Positions 50,456 to 57,215 of a DNA stretch of 64,000 nucleotides are shown here, piece by piece; the first letter of the stretch is position 1, and each line of letters begins with the position of its first letter. A program made the translations under genes and the position numbers. The notes under the pieces are model-generated. The model saw only the letters and a list, made by a program, of their open reading frames with translations. It was not told the DNA's origin and made no database searches. This stretch comes from an uncultured Dokdonia sp. Its GTDB lineage: Bacteria > Bacteroidota > Bacteroidia > Flavobacteriales > Flavobacteriaceae. The stretch spans positions 434,001 through 498,000 of the forward strand of contig NZ_CANLNH010000001.1 in NCBI RefSeq assembly GCF_947492535.1, given 5' to 3'.

Positions 50456-50725
50456 TTATTTTCTAATACCTAATTCTTTAATTATAGCACGGTATCTTAA
50501 TACGTCTTTCTTGATTAAATAATCAAGAAGCGAACGACGCTTACCTACCAGCTTTACTAATGAACGCTCTGTATTATAATCTTTACGATTATTTTTTAAG
50601 TGCCCCGTTAGGTGATTAATACGGTGTGTAAACAATGCGATCTGTCCTTCAGCAGAACCTGTATCGTTTTTACCTTTACCGTGTTTTTCGAAAATTTCTT
50701 CTTTAACTTCTTTTGTTAAATACAT
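50456..50725 (-). CDS. rpsO: 30S ribosomal protein S15
   Basis: The 89-residue protein matches S15 over its whole length: FEKHGKGKNDTGSAEGQIA, then LFTHRINHLTGHLKNNRKDY and RSLLDYL, then RYRAIIKELGIRK. It binds 16S rRNA at the central domain and initiates platform assembly. A clean TAnnTTTG box (TATCTTTG, leftward) lies 54 bp upstream of the ATG. pnp follows in the same direction. Confidence 0.98.
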   Translation of the reverse strand: MYLTKEVKEEIFEKHGKGKNDTGSAEGQIALFTHRINHLTGHLKNNRKDYNTERSLVKLVGKRRSLLDYLIKKDVLRYRAIIKELGIRK

Positions 50726-50778
50726 TCCAATATTATTTAAATGATTTTTATGTATATGATAGACTGTCTATCAGCGTG

Positions 50779-50786
50779 CAAAGATA
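50779..50786 (-). promoter_or_regulatory. rpsO promoter -7 element
   Basis: Leftward TATCTTTG followed by CA matches the Bacteroidetes -7 consensus TAnnTTTG exactly. A convincing -33 TTG at 19-21 bp was not found, so only the -7 is called. Confidence 0.6.
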
Positions 50787-51783: not shown

Positions 51784-52680
51784 TTATTTTGAAGTAAGCT
51801 CAAGAAAAAGACTTTCTAAACTTGCATTCTTTTGATTCAATTGTAAAATTTTAAGTTCGTTGTCATGCGCAAAATCAAATACTTTAGAACGCATGTCTTC
51901 TTTTGTATTAAAAGTAATTTCATAGATGAAATCATGTGTGTTCTTTACAGACACAACTTTATCTAATCGTTCTAAAGCAACTGTTTCTACACGGTAGTCA
52001 AACTCTACAATAACAGCTTGTTGTTGCCCTTCTCTAAGTTCTTGTAGTTTTTTGTCAGCTACAATTTTTCCTTTATTAATAATAATAACACGATCACAGA
52101 TAGCTTCTACTTCTTGCATAATATGCGTGCTCATTAAAATAGTCTTTTCTTTACCAATAGATTTGATAAGCCCTCGTATTTCTAGTAATTGATTTGGATC
52201 TAAACCTGTTGTAGGTTCATCTAGAATTAAAACTTCAGGATCATGTAATAAAGCATTTGCAAGTCCAACACGTTGTCTATATCCTTTGGAGAGTTGCCCT
52301 ATTTTTTTATGTGCTTCAGGTGTGAGACCCGTAAGTTCTATCACTTCTTGTACGCGTTCTTTTTTTGTTTTATGCACATTTGCATTAAATGCTAAATACT
52401 CGCGTACATACATTTCTAAGTAGAGTGGATTGTGTTCTGGTAAATACCCTACAGATTTGCGTACGTTTTGTATTTGTTTTAAAGTGTCATACTCATTTAC
52501 AATGGCAGTTCCTTTAGTGGGAGAAAGGTAGGTAGTTAAGATTTTCATCATCGTACTCTTTCCTGCACCATTAGGGCCTAAAAAGCCTACAATCTCTCCT
52601 TTGGTAAGTGTGAAAGAAACATCATCCAATGCTTTTTGAGTGTGATATGTTTTGGTGATATTTTTTACAGCGATAGACAT
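51784..52680 (-). CDS. gldA: Gliding-motility ABC transporter ATP-binding protein GldA
   Basis: The 298-residue ATPase has Walker A GPNGAGKST (35-43), signature LSKGYRQR, Walker B VLILDEPTTGLDP and switch His in LMSTHIMQE. The long C-terminal extension and overall sequence match GldA. In Flavobacterium johnsoniae GldA works with GldF and GldG in gliding motility; gldFG are not in this window. A TAGATTTG element (leftward, 52695-52702) lies just upstream, but it would give only a very short leader. The neighbouring pheA operon is divergent. Confidence 0.9.
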   Translation of the reverse strand: MSIAVKNITKTYHTQKALDDVSFTLTKGEIVGFLGPNGAGKSTMMKILTTYLSPTKGTAIVNEYDTLKQIQNVRKSVGYLPEHNPLYLEMYVREYLAFNANVHKTKKERVQEVIELTGLTPEAHKKIGQLSKGYRQRVGLANALLHDPEVLILDEPTTGLDPNQLLEIRGLIKSIGKEKTILMSTHIMQEVEAICDRVIIINKGKIVADKKLQELREGQQQAVIVEFDYRVETVALERLDKVVSVKNTHDFIYEITFNTKEDMRSKVFDFAHDNELKILQLNQKNASLESLFLELTSK

Positions 52681-52818
52681 AAAAGACGTTTTTACAAATC
52701 TAACGAATAAGAATAATACATATTTTATATTATTTCAGTAGTTTTTTTATGAAAACATAAATATTCAATACGAAAATTGAAACTACTGAAAAAAAAGTTA
52801 AAAAATAATTGACTTATG

Positions 52819-52848
52819 TTGTTTAACTTACTTTTTTTTCTACTTTTA
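52819..52848 (+). promoter_or_regulatory. Bacteroidetes-type promoter of the aromatic leader
   Basis: TTG at 52819-52821 and TACTTTTA at 52841-52848 (consensus TAnnTTTG, last base differs) are separated by the consensus 19 bp. This places the transcription start about 10-15 bp before the leader ATG at 52867. Confidence 0.65.
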
Positions 52849-52866
52849 CAGCATAACAAATTCATA

Positions 52867-52935
52867 ATGTTTACAAACATTTATTACTGGAATAACTATT
52901 TCTTTTTCTTCGGGCAGTTGAAATCGGGACGGTGA
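52867..52935 (+). CDS. pheL: Aromatic-residue-rich leader peptide of the pheA operon
   Basis: A 22-codon frame has ATG at 52867 and TGA at 52933-52935. Nine of the 22 residues are aromatic: Phe2, Tyr6, Tyr7, Trp8, Tyr11 and the run Phe12-Phe15 (IYYW then YFFFF). This is the classical design of a leader peptide read by ribosomes to sense charged tRNA-Phe/Tyr. It lies directly downstream of a promoter and is followed by a factor-independent terminator and the Phe/Tyr biosynthesis operon. The symbol pheL is used by analogy with enteric leaders. It is too short to have another likely function. Confidence 0.85.
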   Translation: MFTNIYYWNNYFFFFGQLKSGR

Positions 52936-52998
52936 TTGTAATAAATACACTCAAAAACTCTTAAAGTCCTGATTTTTTTATCAGGACTTTTTTTTGTT
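52879..52998 (+). promoter_or_regulatory. Transcription attenuator of the Phe/Tyr operon
   Basis: Four pairing segments are visible. Segment 1 (52879-52887, inside Tyr6-Tyr7 codons) can pair perfectly with 52938-52946 just after the leader stop (9 bp). Segment 2 (52923-52930, ATCGGGAC) can pair with segment 3 (52966-52973, GTCCTGAT; seven Watson-Crick and one G-U pair). Segments 3 and 4 (52963-52973 and 52980-52990, AAAGTCCTGAT / ATCAGGACTTT) form a perfect 11-bp terminator followed by T8. A ribosome stalled on the Phe codons leaves segment 2 free, so 2-3 pairs and the terminator is prevented; a ribosome reaching the stop covers segment 2. Pairing is read by eye; function is inferred. Confidence 0.8.
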
Positions 52999-53080
52999 TT
53001 AATGGGAATCAGTTTACCCTGTGAATTGTTACTAGAAATATGAAGTAAAATAAGATTTTCACCTGTGTGGAAATAAAATA

Positions 53081-53206
53081 AAAAGTCGGATGTTGGGATG
53101 AGATTCCCGCCTTCGAGATAAAAAAAAGTCGGATGTTGGGTGAGATTCCCGCCTTCGAGATAAAAAAAAGTCGGATGTTGGGTGAGATTCCCGCCTTCGC
53201 GGGAAT
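53081..53206. repeat. Three tandem 42-43-bp repeats upstream of pheA
   Basis: Three units share AAGTCGGATGTTGGG, then TGAGATTCCCGCCTTCG. Unit starts, marked by the base G of GTCGGA, are at 53085, 53128 and 53170. Units 1 and 2 end in AGATAAAA, whereas unit 3 completes the palindrome. The array is within the transcribed leader, after the attenuator. It has no CRISPR architecture because there are no spacers. Confidence 0.9.
53187..53206. repeat. 20-bp REP-like palindrome three bases before the pheA ATG
   Basis: ATTCCCGCCTTCGCGGGAAT is a perfect 8-bp stem with a CTTC loop. It has the ATTCCC-N8-GGGAAT form of dispersed repeats such as neisserial dRS3. Its stem ends only 3 bp before the pheA ATG, so it could mask the start region of the mRNA. 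Confidence 0.75.
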
Positions 53207-53209
53207 AAA

Positions 53210-54028
53210 ATGAGTATAGCAATTCAAGGCGTAAAAGGTTCTTTTCATCACAAAGTGGCGCAGACATTTTTTGAGGCCAATGTATCTGTACTAGAATGCA
53301 TGTCGTTTCCAATACTCGTAGATCAATTAGTGTCTGGAAAAGCGACGGCAGCAGTGATGGCTATAGAAAATTCGATTGCAGGAGCTATTCTGCCTAATTA
53401 TGCACTTATAGATCAGCATCAACTCACAATAGAAGGAGAATTTTACTTAGATGTACAACATAACCTTATGGCTTTACCGGGAGAGAATATAGAAGATATT
53501 AAGGAGGTATGGTCACATCCAATGGCGCTCATTCAATGCCGTGCTTTTTTTGAACAGTACCCTACTATAAAATTAGTAGAAGCTACAGATACAGCAGCCG
53601 TTGCACATCAGATACAAGAACAACAACTTAAAGGGGTTGCTGCGATTGCTAGTGAAGCAGCTGCTCAGATTTACGGTTTGGATATTATTGCGCATCAAAT
53701 ACAAACGATTAAACATAATGAGACACGTTTCTTCATCTTAAATACAAAGGAGAAACAACTTAATACAGCTTGTAATAAGGTATCTATCTGTTTTAGAACA
53801 GATCATAAAAGAGGGAGTCTAGCTACTATTCTTAACGTTATGAGTGATTGTAAACTCAATTTGACTAAAATACAGTCAATGCCAGTTATAGAAATGCCAT
53901 GGCAGTATGCCTTTTTTGTAGATGTAACTTTTGAGGCCTATAGCGATTATGAAAAAGCAAAAAAAGTACTGGCTATTATGTCTACAGATTTTAAAGTATT
54001 AGGGGAATATAAAAATCAAAAGCGATGA
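53210..54028 (+). CDS. pheA: Prephenate dehydratase
   Basis: The 272-residue protein has the prephenate dehydratase domain (ENSIAG near 53, VEATDTAAVA at 123-132, and the catalytic Thr172-Arg173-Phe174 in NETRFFIL) and a C-terminal ACT domain (about 190-270). It converts prephenate to phenylpyruvate. There is no fused chorismate mutase. The ACT domain reads KIQSMP where Phe-sensing enzymes have the ESRP motif (residues 222-225), so Phe feedback may be weak or different. It is first in an operon with an aminotransferase, tyrA and a DAHP synthase/chorismate mutase, under the attenuator. The ATG overlaps no other gene; the next ATG overlaps its stop (ATGA). Confidence 0.94.
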   Translation: MSIAIQGVKGSFHHKVAQTFFEANVSVLECMSFPILVDQLVSGKATAAVMAIENSIAGAILPNYALIDQHQLTIEGEFYLDVQHNLMALPGENIEDIKEVWSHPMALIQCRAFFEQYPTIKLVEATDTAAVAHQIQEQQLKGVAAIASEAAAQIYGLDIIAHQIQTIKHNETRFFILNTKEKQLNTACNKVSICFRTDHKRGSLATILNVMSDCKLNLTKIQSMPVIEMPWQYAFFVDVTFEAYSDYEKAKKVLAIMSTDFKVLGEYKNQKR

Positions 54029-55167
54029 TACAACCTGCAAATAGATTATTAGAAACCAAGGAGTATTACTTTTCGCGAAAGCTTAAAGAAGTACGCGCAT
54101 TAGAAGCTGCAGGTCATCCTATTATAAATATGGGAATTGGAAGTCCAGATGTGGCTGCTCCAGATGCTGTTGTAACTGCTCTAAATACTGCGTTAGAAAA
54201 CCCTAAAGTACATCAATATCAGAGTTATACGGGAATTCCTGAGTTAAGAGAAGCAATGGCTGTTTTTTATAAGAAACAGTACAATGTGCAGATAGATCCA
54301 ACGACAGAAGTATTGCCTTTGATGGGGTCGAAGGAAGGGATTATGCATATAAGTATGGCATTTCTTAATGCAGGAGATGAGGTTCTGATTCCTAATCCTG
54401 GATACCCTACATACAGTGCAGTGGCTAAGTTGGTTGAGGCAGTACCTGTATTATATGATTTAGATGAAACAAATCATTGGTTGCCAGATTTAGAGGCATT
54501 ACAAGAGCAGGATCTACGTCAAGTAAAAATCATGTGGATAAATTACCCACATATGCCTACAGGAGCCACCGTGAAAGATGGTTTTTTTGAAAAATTAATT
54601 GCTTTCGCGAAAGCAAACGACATCCTTATTGTTAATGATAATCCCTATAGTTTTATATTGAATAAAGACCCCATGTCAATTCTTAGCGTAGATGGCGCAA
54701 AGGAAGTTGCTTTAGAACTTAATTCCTTGAGTAAGAGTTTTAATATGGCGGGCTGGCGTGTAGGTATGGTGATGGGAAGTGAAACATTTATAAATCACAT
54801 CTTGAAGGTGAAATCTAATATGGATAGTGGTATGTTTTATGGTATTCAGCAAGGCGCTATTGCTGCATTACAACTTGATGATTCTTGGTTTGAATCTATA
54901 AATACACGTTATAAAAAACGAAGAGCTCTTATCTATACGCTTGTAGAAAAATTAGGGTGTACCTATAAAGAAGATGGTGTAGGGCTTTTTGTGTGGGCAA
55001 AACTCCCAGAAGGTGTAGATGCTGAGGTTTTTATTGATAAAATATTGTACAATCAGCATGTATTTATAACACCAGGAACCATTTTTGGAAGTCAAGGTGA
55101 AGGCTATATACGTTTTAGTTTGTGCGTAACAGAAGATCAAATTCAAAAAGCGATTGATCGGTTTTAA
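54025..55167 (+). CDS. PLP-dependent aminotransferase (class I/II) of the aromatic operon
   Basis: The 380-residue protein is a fold-type I aminotransferase: GSPDVAAPDAVV near the N-terminus, NPGYPTYSA, INYPHMPTGA, VNDNPYSF, PLP-binding Lys237 (SLSKSFNMAGWRVG) and IRFSLCV at the C-terminus. Placed between pheA and tyrA, it most likely transaminates phenylpyruvate and 4-hydroxyphenylpyruvate, the last step of Phe and Tyr synthesis. Its start overlaps the pheA stop by 4 bp. It contains one perfect copy of the 14-bp palindrome (54601, encoding AFAKA) and a weaker copy at 54069-54082. Exact substrate range is inferred from the operon. Confidence 0.87.
   Translation: MIQPANRLLETKEYYFSRKLKEVRALEAAGHPIINMGIGSPDVAAPDAVVTALNTALENPKVHQYQSYTGIPELREAMAVFYKKQYNVQIDPTTEVLPLMGSKEGIMHISMAFLNAGDEVLIPNPGYPTYSAVAKLVEAVPVLYDLDETNHWLPDLEALQEQDLRQVKIMWINYPHMPTGATVKDGFFEKLIAFAKANDILIVNDNPYSFILNKDPMSILSVDGAKEVALELNSLSKSFNMAGWRVGMVMGSETFINHILKVKSNMDSGMFYGIQQGAIAALQLDDSWFESINTRYKKRRALIYTLVEKLGCTYKEDGVGLFVWAKLPEGVDAEVFIDKILYNQHVFITPGTIFGSQGEGYIRFSLCVTEDQIQKAIDRF
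54601..54614. repeat. 14-bp iterated palindrome, copy 9 (inside a gene)
   Basis: Perfect GCTTTCGCGAAAGC within the aminotransferase gene, read as AFAKA. A two-mismatch relative is at 54069-54082, and 55172-55185 in the next spacer differs at one base. Confidence 0.9.
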
Positions 55168-55249: not shown

Positions 55250-56101
55250 TTGGAAAAAATATACATCATAGGGATCGGATTGATAGGAGGCTCTTTTGCA
55301 AGAGATCTTAGAAAATTATACCCAAAAGCTAAAATCTTTGGGATAGATACAACGCCTAGTCATATCACTGAAGCTATACGTATAGGATTAATTGATGAAG
55401 AGGCCACAATTGAAGGCTTAGGAGAAGCAGATATGGTAGTGTTATCTATTCCTGTTGATATTGCCGTAAAAGTACTGCCAAAAGTATTAGATCATATAAA
55501 CGATCAAACATTGGTTATTGATATGGGATCTACCAAAGCATCTATCTGTGCTTGCGTAGCAACTCATGAGAAGCGAAGAAATTTTTTAGCCTGTCATCCT
55601 ATTGCAGGAACAGAGTTTTCTGGGCCAATGGCAGCTATAGAAGGGCTTTATCATGGGAAGACTAATATTATTTGTGAAGTAGAGAAAACAAGTTTTAAAC
55701 TACAAGAAAAGGCTTTGCAATTATTTACGTCTATAGGGATGCGTATTCGGTATATGGATCCTGTGTCTCATGATAAGCATATTGCTTATGTGTCTCATTT
55801 ATCACATATAAGTGCTTTTATGTTAGGGAAAACAGTAATTGATAAAGAAAAAAACGAACGAGATATTTTTGATATGGCAGGAAGTGGTTTTGCATCTACT
55901 GTAAGACTTGCAAAAAGTAATCCAGTTACTTGGACTTCCATATTTAAGCAGAATAAGAAAAACATTTTAGAAACACTAGATGAGTATATTTCTAATCTCA
56001 CTCACTTTAAAGAATTAATGCAAGAAGATAATTTTATAGCAGTGCATAAAGAGATGGAAAATACAAATCATATTAAAGAAATATTAAAAGGAATAGAATA
56101 A
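55250..56101 (+). CDS. tyrA: Prephenate dehydrogenase
   Basis: The 283-residue protein begins at TTG 55250 (MEKIYIIGIGLIGGSFARDL), because the NAD-binding GxGxxG sits at the very N-terminus and no ATG precedes it. The prephenate-binding motif is seen in ACHPIAGTEFSGP (about 118-130) and DKHIAYVSHLSHISAF. It oxidises prephenate to 4-hydroxyphenylpyruvate, the Tyr branch. No chorismate mutase or ACT domain is fused. The gap to the preceding gene is 82 bp and carries an imperfect palindrome copy. Confidence 0.93.
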   Translation: MEKIYIIGIGLIGGSFARDLRKLYPKAKIFGIDTTPSHITEAIRIGLIDEEATIEGLGEADMVVLSIPVDIAVKVLPKVLDHINDQTLVIDMGSTKASICACVATHEKRRNFLACHPIAGTEFSGPMAAIEGLYHGKTNIICEVEKTSFKLQEKALQLFTSIGMRIRYMDPVSHDKHIAYVSHLSHISAFMLGKTVIDKEKNERDIFDMAGSGFASTVRLAKSNPVTWTSIFKQNKKNILETLDEYISNLTHFKELMQEDNFIAVHKEMENTNHIKEILKGIE

Positions 56102-56129: not shown

Positions 56130-57215
56130 ATGGAGAATAAGAAAGAACTTAGAAATTGGTTAGATGCTTTTGGTTTGGATCATCCACTTGTGATCGCTGG
56201 ACCGTGTAGTGCCGAAACAGAAGAGCAGTTATTGAAAATTGCACATCAACTTAAAGATACAGATGCAACGGTATTAAGAGCTGGTATATGGAAACCTCGT
56301 ACACGACCAGGTAATTTTGAAGGGGTAGGCGCACTAGGATTAAAGTGGCTACAGAAAGCAAAGCAAGAAACAGGAATGCTTACGACTACAGAAGTTGCAA
56401 ATCCGCATCACGTAGAGCTTGCGTTACAACATGATGTAGATATTCTATGGATTGGAGCTCGTACGACAGTATCTCCTTTTATTGTGCAAGATATTGCAGA
56501 TGCGCTTAAAGGAACCGATAAGACAGTATTAATTAAAAATCCTGTGAATCCAGATTTATCATTATGGCTAGGCGCTGTAGAGCGTTTTTATACTGCAGAT
56601 ATTAAAAATTTAGGAGTGATTCATAGAGGGTTTTCTACTTATGAAAAAACACGTTATAGAAACAATCCAGAATGGCAAATAGCAATTGATCTTCAAAACC
56701 GTTTTCCAGATCTTCCTTTAATTCTTGATCCTTCTCATATTGCAGGTCGTCGTGATATTATTCATGATCTGAGCCAGACGGCATTAGATCTGAATTACGA
56801 TGGTTTGATGGTAGAGACACATTATGATCCAGATAATGCTTGGAGTGATGCTGCTCAACAAATTACTCCAGACACATTAATCCAAATGATGATTGATCTG
56901 AAAATTAGAAAAGTAGAAGGAAGTGAGGTAGAGTATAACAATAAAATTAATACCCTACGTACGCAAATAGATGTAGTGGATCATCAACTTATAGAGTCTT
57001 TAGGAAAACGTATGAAGATTGCAGATCAGATTGGACACCTTAAAAAAGATAATAATGTTGCGATACTACAAACAAAACGTTGGAATGAAATTTTAGGGAA
57101 GATGATTTTAGAAGGAGAACAAAATAACTTAAGCGAAGAATTTATTCTTAGAGTATTTAAAGCAATACATCAAGAATCTATTAATCATCAGCAAAAAATA
57201 GCACTTTCAAAGTAA
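56130..57215 (+). CDS. Bifunctional DAHP synthase / chorismate mutase (AroQ type)
   Basis: The 361-residue protein joins a DAHP synthase barrel (about 15-265) to a C-terminal chorismate mutase of the AroQ class (about 270-355). Synthase motifs are VIAGPCSAET, GIWKPRTRPGNFEGVG, NPDLSLWLGAVER and ILDPSHIAGRRD. The mutase has LRTQIDVVDHQLIESLGKRM then QIGHLKKDNN. One protein therefore provides the first step of the shikimate pathway and the chorismate-to-prephenate step, so chorismate flux is directed to prephenate in the same operon as pheA and tyrA. The ATG is 29 bp after tyrA. A strong terminator follows at 57249. Confidence 0.95.
   Translation: MENKKELRNWLDAFGLDHPLVIAGPCSAETEEQLLKIAHQLKDTDATVLRAGIWKPRTRPGNFEGVGALGLKWLQKAKQETGMLTTTEVANPHHVELALQHDVDILWIGARTTVSPFIVQDIADALKGTDKTVLIKNPVNPDLSLWLGAVERFYTADIKNLGVIHRGFSTYEKTRYRNNPEWQIAIDLQNRFPDLPLILDPSHIAGRRDIIHDLSQTALDLNYDGLMVETHYDPDNAWSDAAQQITPDTLIQMMIDLKIRKVEGSEVEYNNKINTLRTQIDVVDHQLIESLGKRMKIADQIGHLKKDNNVAILQTKRWNEILGKMILEGEQNNLSEEFILRVFKAIHQESINHQQKIALSK

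What the first reader, a model, noticed from the sequence alone, without database searches (positions are those of the whole stretch)
52867..52998. Ribosome-mediated attenuator for Phe/Tyr synthesis in a Bacteroidetes
A 22-codon leader with nine aromatic codons (four consecutive Phe, three Tyr, one Trp) lies between a promoter and an 11-bp terminator with T8. A candidate antiterminator (52923-52930 with 52966-52973) and a competing 9-bp pairing (52879-52887 with 52938-52946) complete a classical attenuation design. The downstream operon makes exactly these amino acids. Leader-peptide attenuation is best known from Proteobacteria and is less studied in Bacteroidetes, where transcription-translation coupling is little tested.
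Basis: partly seen in the sequence, partly recalled or inferred. Interest (0 to 1): 0.88.

Follow-up and report, generated by a model that had tools for sequence, protein, structure and literature searches.

The report
Ribosome-sensed attenuator for aromatic amino acids
In front of the genes that make phenylalanine and tyrosine this bacterium carries a tiny test message rich in those amino acids, which very probably lets the genes be read only when they run short; the design is classical, but here it turns out to be conserved across much of a bacterial phylum where it has hardly been described.

Summary
The finding holds up. At 52867-52995 lie a 22-codon leader with nine aromatic codons, an 11-bp terminator with T8, an 8-bp antiterminator and a 9-bp competing pairing, at the stated coordinates. 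Behind it are prephenate dehydratase, an aminotransferase, prephenate dehydrogenase and DAHP synthase-chorismate mutase. The same leader precedes pheA in 168 of 170 relatives' loci by script (139 distinct sequences; the other two by eye), against 3 of 450 shuffles. All three alternative helices covary. The antiterminator strand sits inside leader codons in all three reading frames, so RNA, not peptide, is selected. A stall model gives antitermination at aromatic codons and little just past them. The genome also has His, Trp and probably Ile leaders; His and Trp leaders are near-universal in the family sample. Best reading: classical ribosome-mediated attenuation, inferred from sequence; starvation-dependent read-through is untested. 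Precedents: Rfam Bacteroid-trp, and "strong clues" in Flavobacterium psychrophilum. No Rfam family covered the Phe/Tyr element in the loci scanned. New member of a known kind, with use as a natural test of transcription-translation coupling in Bacteroidota.

The parts
52819..52848 (+). probable promoter: TTG, 19 nt, TACTTTTA; start of transcription expected near 52853, giving a leader of about 14 nt before the ATG
   Evidence: resembles TAnnTTTG (-12 to -5) of flavobacterial sigma-A (PMC9723704, passages); a -7-like element found before 84 of 139 relatives' leaders, TACTTT in 78 of 139, with 57 TTG occurrences 18 nt upstream; start site inferred
52867..52935 (+). leader ORF MFTNIYYWNNYFFFFGQLKSGR*
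   Evidence: ORF of the same type at 168 of 170 pheA loci
52882..52911 (+). control codons: Tyr-Tyr-Trp (52882-52890) and Tyr-Phe-Phe-Phe-Phe (52897-52911)
   Evidence: last aromatic run conserved, synonymous TTT/TTC and TAT/TAC changes within it
52879..52887 (+). segment 1, pairs with 52938-52946
   Evidence: 9 pairs; covaries in 44 aligned relatives
52923..52930 (+). segment 2, antiterminator strand inside leader codons
   Evidence: 8 pairs with segment 3; covaries
52938..52946 (+). partner of segment 1, just after the leader stop codon
52963..52973 (+). segment 3, 5' arm of the terminator and partner of segment 2
52980..52995 (+). segment 4, 3' arm of the terminator (52980-52990) and T8 (52988-52995)
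53080..53199 (+). 2.8 tandem copies of a 42-bp repeat between terminator and pheA; not part of the attenuator
   Evidence: not in the same-genus genome G206, whose terminator abuts pheA
53210..54028 (+). pheA, prephenate dehydratase
54025..55167 (+). class I/II aminotransferase, probably aromatic (substrate inferred from context)
55250..56101 (+). tyrA, prephenate dehydrogenase
56130..57215 (+). DAHP synthase fused to chorismate mutase

Best explanation
A classical ribosome-mediated transcription attenuator with the four-segment layout of the E. coli trp leader. RNA polymerase starts about 14 nt before the leader ATG (inferred). When charged Phe-, Tyr- (or Trp-) tRNA is plentiful the ribosome runs to the leader stop codon, covers segment 2, segment 3 pairs with segment 4 and transcription ends before pheA. 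When an aromatic tRNA is short the ribosome stalls on the aromatic codons, leaving segment 2 free; it pairs with segment 3 as soon as this is made, the terminator cannot form in time, and pheA, the aminotransferase gene, tyrA and the DAHP synthase-chorismate mutase gene are transcribed. Shown here: the parts, their conservation and covariation, the fit of the spacing to a ribosome footprint in a model. Inferred: that the leader is translated, that the decision is made during transcription, and which of the three amino acids matters most (Phe first, from the run).
For: Leader + terminator before pheA in 168 of 170 loci by script, the other two (L078; L114 with a GTG start) by eye; among 30 family genomes picked for the most divergent PheA, 25 of 29 scored, one more by eye; 3 of 450 shuffles. 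Helix 2:3: 96.2% of cells paired, 30 double changes, covariation 0.397 against 0.246, 0 of 500 shuffles; helix 3:4: 94.0%, 34 double changes, 0 of 500; helix 1:2: 68.6%, 68 double changes, 0.369 against 0.171, 0 of 500. Own segments 2 and 3 pair 6 of 6 in 116 of 139 leaders, against 25% for segment 3 of other leaders and 2.6% for shuffled segment 2. Segment 2 lies in frames 2, 1, 0 of the leader in 101, 25 and 12 of 138, so it is kept as RNA. Segment 2 starts 7-16 nt (mode 11) after the aromatic run. Stall model, footprint assumed: antiterminator probability 0.92-1.0 with any of the last 13 codons up to the end of the run in the A site, 0.74 one codon later, 0.12 two codons later, 0.07 at the stop. 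Operon content matches the codons. A at -3 of the leader start in 86% of 139, fitting the initiation signal of Flavobacterium johnsoniae (PMC6847099, abstract and passages), Shine-Dalgarno-like motif in 0 of 139.
Against: No expression data. At equilibrium the terminator wins even in the modelled starved state (0.81), and without a ribosome the antiterminator is still favoured (0.64; window 1.0), so a purely thermodynamic switch is not predicted. For helices 2:3 and 1:2, two of five measures (number of pairs with double changes; further pair types) are not beyond the shuffles (173 and 228 of 500; 106 and 32 of 500). On a PheA tree the independent-pair tests point the right way but have too few pairs for significance. 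Two divergent family genomes (L217, L225) lack the element in the DNA seen.
Confidence: 0.92

Rival explanations
1. Translational rather than transcriptional control: the hairpin next to the pheA start codon blocks initiation, and a stalled ribosome opens it.
For: In many relatives the hairpin ends within about 5-40 nt of the pheA start, in the same-genus genome the T-run abuts it.
Against: The T-run after the hairpin is kept, and in the window the hairpin lies 220 nt before pheA behind tandem repeats; in L138 it lies 419 nt away, in L091 about 530 nt. A start-codon block should not survive that.
Confidence: 0.04
2. The leader encodes a small aromatic-rich protein with its own function and the hairpin is an ordinary terminator behind it.
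For: The ORF is conserved, with a typical initiation context.
Against: After the aromatic run the peptide differs between lineages because the RNA element is read in different frames (at least 5 frame changes on the PheA tree); segments 2 and 3 covary; it sits in front of the aromatic operon, and His and Trp leaders of the same build sit in front of hisG and trpE.
Confidence: 0.02
3. A tRNA-sensing (T-box), riboswitch or protein-binding leader in which the ORF is incidental.
For: A structured leader with a terminator before an amino-acid operon is also what such elements look like.
Against: No T-box or riboswitch match at gathering score in the whole window; the aromatic codons are kept while their third bases change.
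Confidence: 0.02

Closest known systems
pheA (pheL) and trp leader attenuators of Proteobacteria; Rfam RF01859 Phe_leader
   Same: Leader peptide with control codons, mutually exclusive 1:2, 2:3 and 3:4 pairings, terminator before the first structural gene.
   Different: No recognisable sequence relation: 16.4 bits against a gathering score of 55. Control codons include Tyr and often Trp (Trp in 90 of 139 leaders), no Shine-Dalgarno motif, and the operon also holds tyrA and DAHP synthase. The E. coli leaders are recalled, not compared by a call.
Bacteroid-trp (Rfam RF01692, Bacteroidete tryptophan peptide leader)
   Same: Leader-peptide attenuator in the same phylum; matches this genome's own trpE leader (L209, 50.3 bits) and 4 of 7 relatives' trpE loci.
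   Different: Senses Trp (WWW), precedes trpE; does not match the pheA leader.
Leader-peptide attenuation candidates in Flavobacterium psychrophilum (PMC9723704) and short ORFs in leaders of Bacteroides thetaiotaomicron (PMC7366714)
   Same: Strong clues for leader peptide attenuation upstream of amino-acid biosynthesis operons in the same family (passages seen); B. theta leader ORFs are called reminiscent of leader peptides (passages seen).
   Different: The passages name no Phe/Tyr leader and give no covariation; the paper's Table S7, which may list it, could not be opened here.

Membership tests
Ribosome-mediated (leader-peptide) transcription attenuation | Short ORF with codons for the amino acid that the operon makes | tested here: met
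   9 of 22 codons aromatic; operon makes Phe and Tyr
Ribosome-mediated (leader-peptide) transcription attenuation | Intrinsic terminator between leader ORF and first structural gene | tested here: met
   52963-52990 with T8; helix covaries
Ribosome-mediated (leader-peptide) transcription attenuation | Antiterminator that excludes the terminator and is masked by a ribosome at the stop but not by one stalled at control codons | tested here: met
   pairing and covariation; spacing and footprint model with an assumed E. coli-like footprint
Ribosome-mediated (leader-peptide) transcription attenuation | Segment 1 that can sequester segment 2 | tested here: met
   mean duplex energy -11.1 own against -7.8 cross; weak in the window at equilibrium when no ribosome is present
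Ribosome-mediated (leader-peptide) transcription attenuation | Leader is translated and read-through rises on starvation | not testable with these tools
   needs ribosome profiling, 3' end mapping or reporter fusions
Rfam RF01859 Phe_leader | Score at or above the gathering score of 55 bits | tested here: not met
   16.4 bits, E 4.3
Rfam RF01692 Bacteroid-trp | Score at or above the gathering score of 49 bits | tested here: not met
   no match in the window nor in the 9 pheA loci and 4
T-box leader | Match to the Rfam T-box model at gathering score | tested here: not met
   only S15-Flavobacteria matched in the window

The most novel reading that the evidence does not exclude
The pheA leader is a three-way aromatic sensor (Phe run, early Tyr codons, often a Trp codon) and one of a full set of classical attenuators (aromatic, His, Trp, probably Ile and Thr) that Bacteroidia run with leaders lacking Shine-Dalgarno signals and starting about 6-18 nt from the transcript end, which would mean that ribosome loading and transcription are tightly coupled in this phylum from the first codons on.
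Probability: 0.45. Interest if true: 0.65.

Novelty: new member of a known kind. Interest (0 to 1): 0.5.

Why it matters
Leader-peptide attenuation only works if a ribosome follows RNA polymerase closely. Bacteroidota start translation without Shine-Dalgarno pairing (PMC6847099, abstract) and none of the papers found here tested their coupling. A deeply conserved attenuator, with siblings before hisG and trpE, is comparative evidence that coupling is strong enough to regulate by, and offers ready-made reporters for testing it. It also gives annotators a covariation-backed element to name before pheA: in the loci scanned, the Rfam copy named only the Trp leader. An author in 2010 still wrote that leader-peptide systems were not known outside Proteobacteria and Actinobacteria (PMC2965389, passages).

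Tried and rejected
T-box, riboswitch and known leader families: whole-window Rfam scan gave only the S15 leader; relaxed scan of 52780-53230 gave ten sub-threshold matches, Phe_leader among the weakest. E. coli-type promoter scan: chance level, replaced by the flavobacterial motif; a first strict pattern (TA..TTT) found it before only 34 of 139 leaders.

DNA-level copies elsewhere in the own genome: 13 matches, the true one and 12 short ones with E 0.007 or worse; not pursued.

Outside the family: 16 of 27 non-family Bacteroidia loci by script, L202 and L205 by eye, L194 doubtful, 8 without. A second set: 6 of 8 Bacteroidia (L342 with a doubtful terminator), 0 of 1 from the same order. Other classes of the phylum: 0 of 29 in the first set (the 30 loci include L324, same order, also without; many of the 29 are from one family), 2 of 11 in the second. 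So the element looks like a Bacteroidia trait with scattered cases beyond; the two same-order, other-family genomes lack it.

thrA: a Thr/Ile-rich leader ORF in front of one copy (L304), no terminator found by script; left open. The ilvD leader was seen in this genome only.

Counting choices: 170 loci = 90 of the 268 family genomes with PheA (the 30 given as loci plus 60 picked from the listed places, so biased to close PheA) and 80 named loci; some are the same records, hence 139 distinct. In one search and segment 2 is the best-pairing stretch, which favours pairing; the cross and shuffle controls use the same rule, and searches do not choose. L083 fell out of the frame count. For alignment A2, 46 diverse leaders were selected by script (length limit, similarity under 0.84) and 44 used: L083 and L128 were left out because leader or terminator looked irregular. 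In one search the aromatic fractions next to the end of the run are set by construction. One search counted L226 as without, but its contig starts inside the gene; L229 had no upstream DNA. The His and Trp loci are the 30 best-scoring of 55 and 59 genomes with a match; L279 is the own genome.

Full report
What is there. The window carries, divergent from a gldA-type ABC transporter gene (51784-52680, minus strand), a leader region and then pheA, an aminotransferase gene, tyrA and a DAHP synthase-chorismate mutase gene. The region folds better than all of 200 shuffles.

Is it conserved? PheA was found in 268 of 299 genomes of the family. I read upstream DNA of 90 of these, not a random choice, and of 80 named loci. 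A script asking for a short ORF with at least five aromatic codons and a following intrinsic terminator found it at 168 of 170. The two misses show it by eye: L078 and L114, with a GTG start. With the first, slightly different criteria the figures were 87 of 90, against 3 of 450 shuffles. The named loci include Flavobacterium, Aquimarina, Winogradskyella, Maribacter, Tenacibaculum, Leeuwenhoekiella and others. In 30 family genomes picked because their PheA is most divergent, 25 of 29 scored and one more by eye; L217 and L225 lack it, L226 and L229 have no upstream DNA.

Does it covary? On a MAFFT alignment of 44 diverse leaders, with the structure taken from the window, the antiterminator (2:3) has 96.2% of cells paired and 30 cells changed on both sides; the terminator (3:4) 94.0% and 34; the competing 1:2 helix 68.6% and 68. 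For each, cells paired, doubly changed cells and covariation score exceed all 500 shuffles, and sliding the partner by 1-3 columns lowers all three. Two cruder measures do not exceed the shuffles for 2:3 and 1:2. Related sequences can exceed shuffles without structure, so I also counted changes on a PheA tree of 109 proteins: the six-base core of segment 3 changed at least 10 times, the reading frame of segment 2 at least 5; sign tests on independent pairs had too few pairs. Segment 3 has to fit both segment 2 and segment 4, and lineage by lineage all three change together: GUCUCG with CGAGRC, AUCCUG with NAGGAU, AUCCCG with NGGGAU, GUUCCG with CGGGAC.

RNA or peptide? The aromatic run is kept as amino acids with synonymous changes, while segment 2, only some four codons further on, is read in frame 2, 1 or 0 in 101, 25 and 12 leaders, giving unrelated residues. 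So the codons up to the run are selected as codons and the stretch behind it as RNA. That is the signature of attenuation.

Does the geometry work? Segment 2 starts 7-16 nt, mostly 11, after the last aromatic codon. Masking an E. coli-like ribosome footprint (15 nt before and 12 nt from the A-site codon; my assumption) and folding the transcript up to the end of segment 3 gives antiterminator probabilities of 0.92-1.0 for stalls at codons -13 to -1, counting the last aromatic codon as -1, 0.74 one codon later, 0.12 two codons later and 0.07 at the stop. In the window it falls from 0.98 at Gln17 to 0.09 at Leu18. Without any ribosome it is 0.64 on average and 1.0 in the window; at equilibrium over the whole leader the terminator still has 0.81 in the starved state. 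The switch is thus predicted to be kinetic, as in the textbook case, and strong braking without translation is not predicted for this genome.

Transcription or translation? In many relatives the hairpin lies next to the pheA start, where it could also block initiation, but in the window it is 220 nt away behind 2.8 copies of a 42-bp repeat, in L091 about 530 nt and in L138 419 nt, with the T-run intact. Termination is the better reading.

Start signals. A -7-like element precedes 84 of 139 leaders, mostly with TTG 18 nt before it (57 TTG occurrences at that distance). It puts the 5' end some 6-18 nt before the ATG if it starts transcription 12 nt on, as reported for Flavobacterium psychrophilum (PMC9723704, passages). 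A at -3 in 86%, no Shine-Dalgarno-like motif in 139, as expected for the phylum (PMC6847099, abstract and passages).

Not alone. The same genome has MKNNTIHHHHFTLYRSSEVK before hisG, MRNNTVHTWWWNTKQTLS before trpE and MRNQIINSVIIIIPLRE before ilvD, each followed by a terminator. In the family sample a His leader with terminator precedes 28 of 30 hisG loci and a Trp leader 27 of 30 trpE loci by script; the other two and three show one by eye, L245 with only two His in a row and L297 with an unclear start. Outside the family, 16 of 27 Bacteroidia pheA loci score, two more by eye; a second set gives 6 of 8. In other classes of the phylum it is rare: 0 of 29 and 2 of 11.

What is known. Rfam has a Bacteroidete Trp leader (RF01692), which matches this genome's trpE leader and 4 of 7 relatives; it was listed in 2010 (PMC2864571, passages). 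Flavobacterium psychrophilum transcriptomics reported strong clues of leader-peptide attenuation before amino-acid operons (PMC9723704, passages). From memory, a 2004 comparative study by Vitreschak and others also predicted some attenuators in Bacteroidetes/Chlorobi; no call showed it. A 2010 survey saw none outside Proteobacteria and Actinobacteria (PMC2965389, passages), and a paper on his genes in Bacteroidota holds the word leader nowhere in its main text (PMC8305728, word search). Ten literature searches listed no paper on a Phe/Tyr leader in this phylum; subscription journals and supplements were out of reach, so absence from print is not shown. Rfam gave no match at gathering score for the pheA leader in the window or in the 13 other pheA loci scanned, and 16.4 bits against 55 for Phe_leader.

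Verdict.

Noticed in passing
window 53080-53199: 42-bp tandem repeat, 2.8 copies, with GATTCCCGCCTTCG core, lies between the attenuator and pheA; the same-genus genome G206 lacks it, and L091 carries other repeats with a similar CCCGCC..GGCGGG core at the same place.
   Followed up: partly
window 50723-50786, minus strand: S15-Flavobacteria ribosomal protein leader (RF03161, 73.1 bits).
   Followed up: no
L208, upstream of hisG (own genome, contig C13): His leader MKNNTIHHHHFTLYRSSEVK with terminator; same build before 28 of 30 hisG loci by script; none of the 8 hisG loci scanned matched an Rfam family at gathering score.
   Followed up: partly
L209, upstream of trpE (own genome, contig C14): Trp leader MRNNTVHTWWWNTKQTLS with terminator, matches Rfam Bacteroid-trp; Rfam caught 4 of 7 relatives' trpE leaders scanned.
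   Followed up: partly
L211, upstream of ilvD (own genome, contig C7): Ile-rich leader MRNQIINSVIIIIPLRE with terminator; not checked in relatives.
   Followed up: no
L304, upstream of an aspartate kinase-homoserine dehydrogenase gene (own genome, contig C7): Thr/Ile-rich ORF MKTTNYILISSITISTFGTITPLGL, but no terminator found by script.
   Followed up: no
L217, upstream of pheA: One of two divergent family genomes without the leader; its upstream DNA is filled with AGACCTG/CAGGTCT-type repeats.
   Followed up: no
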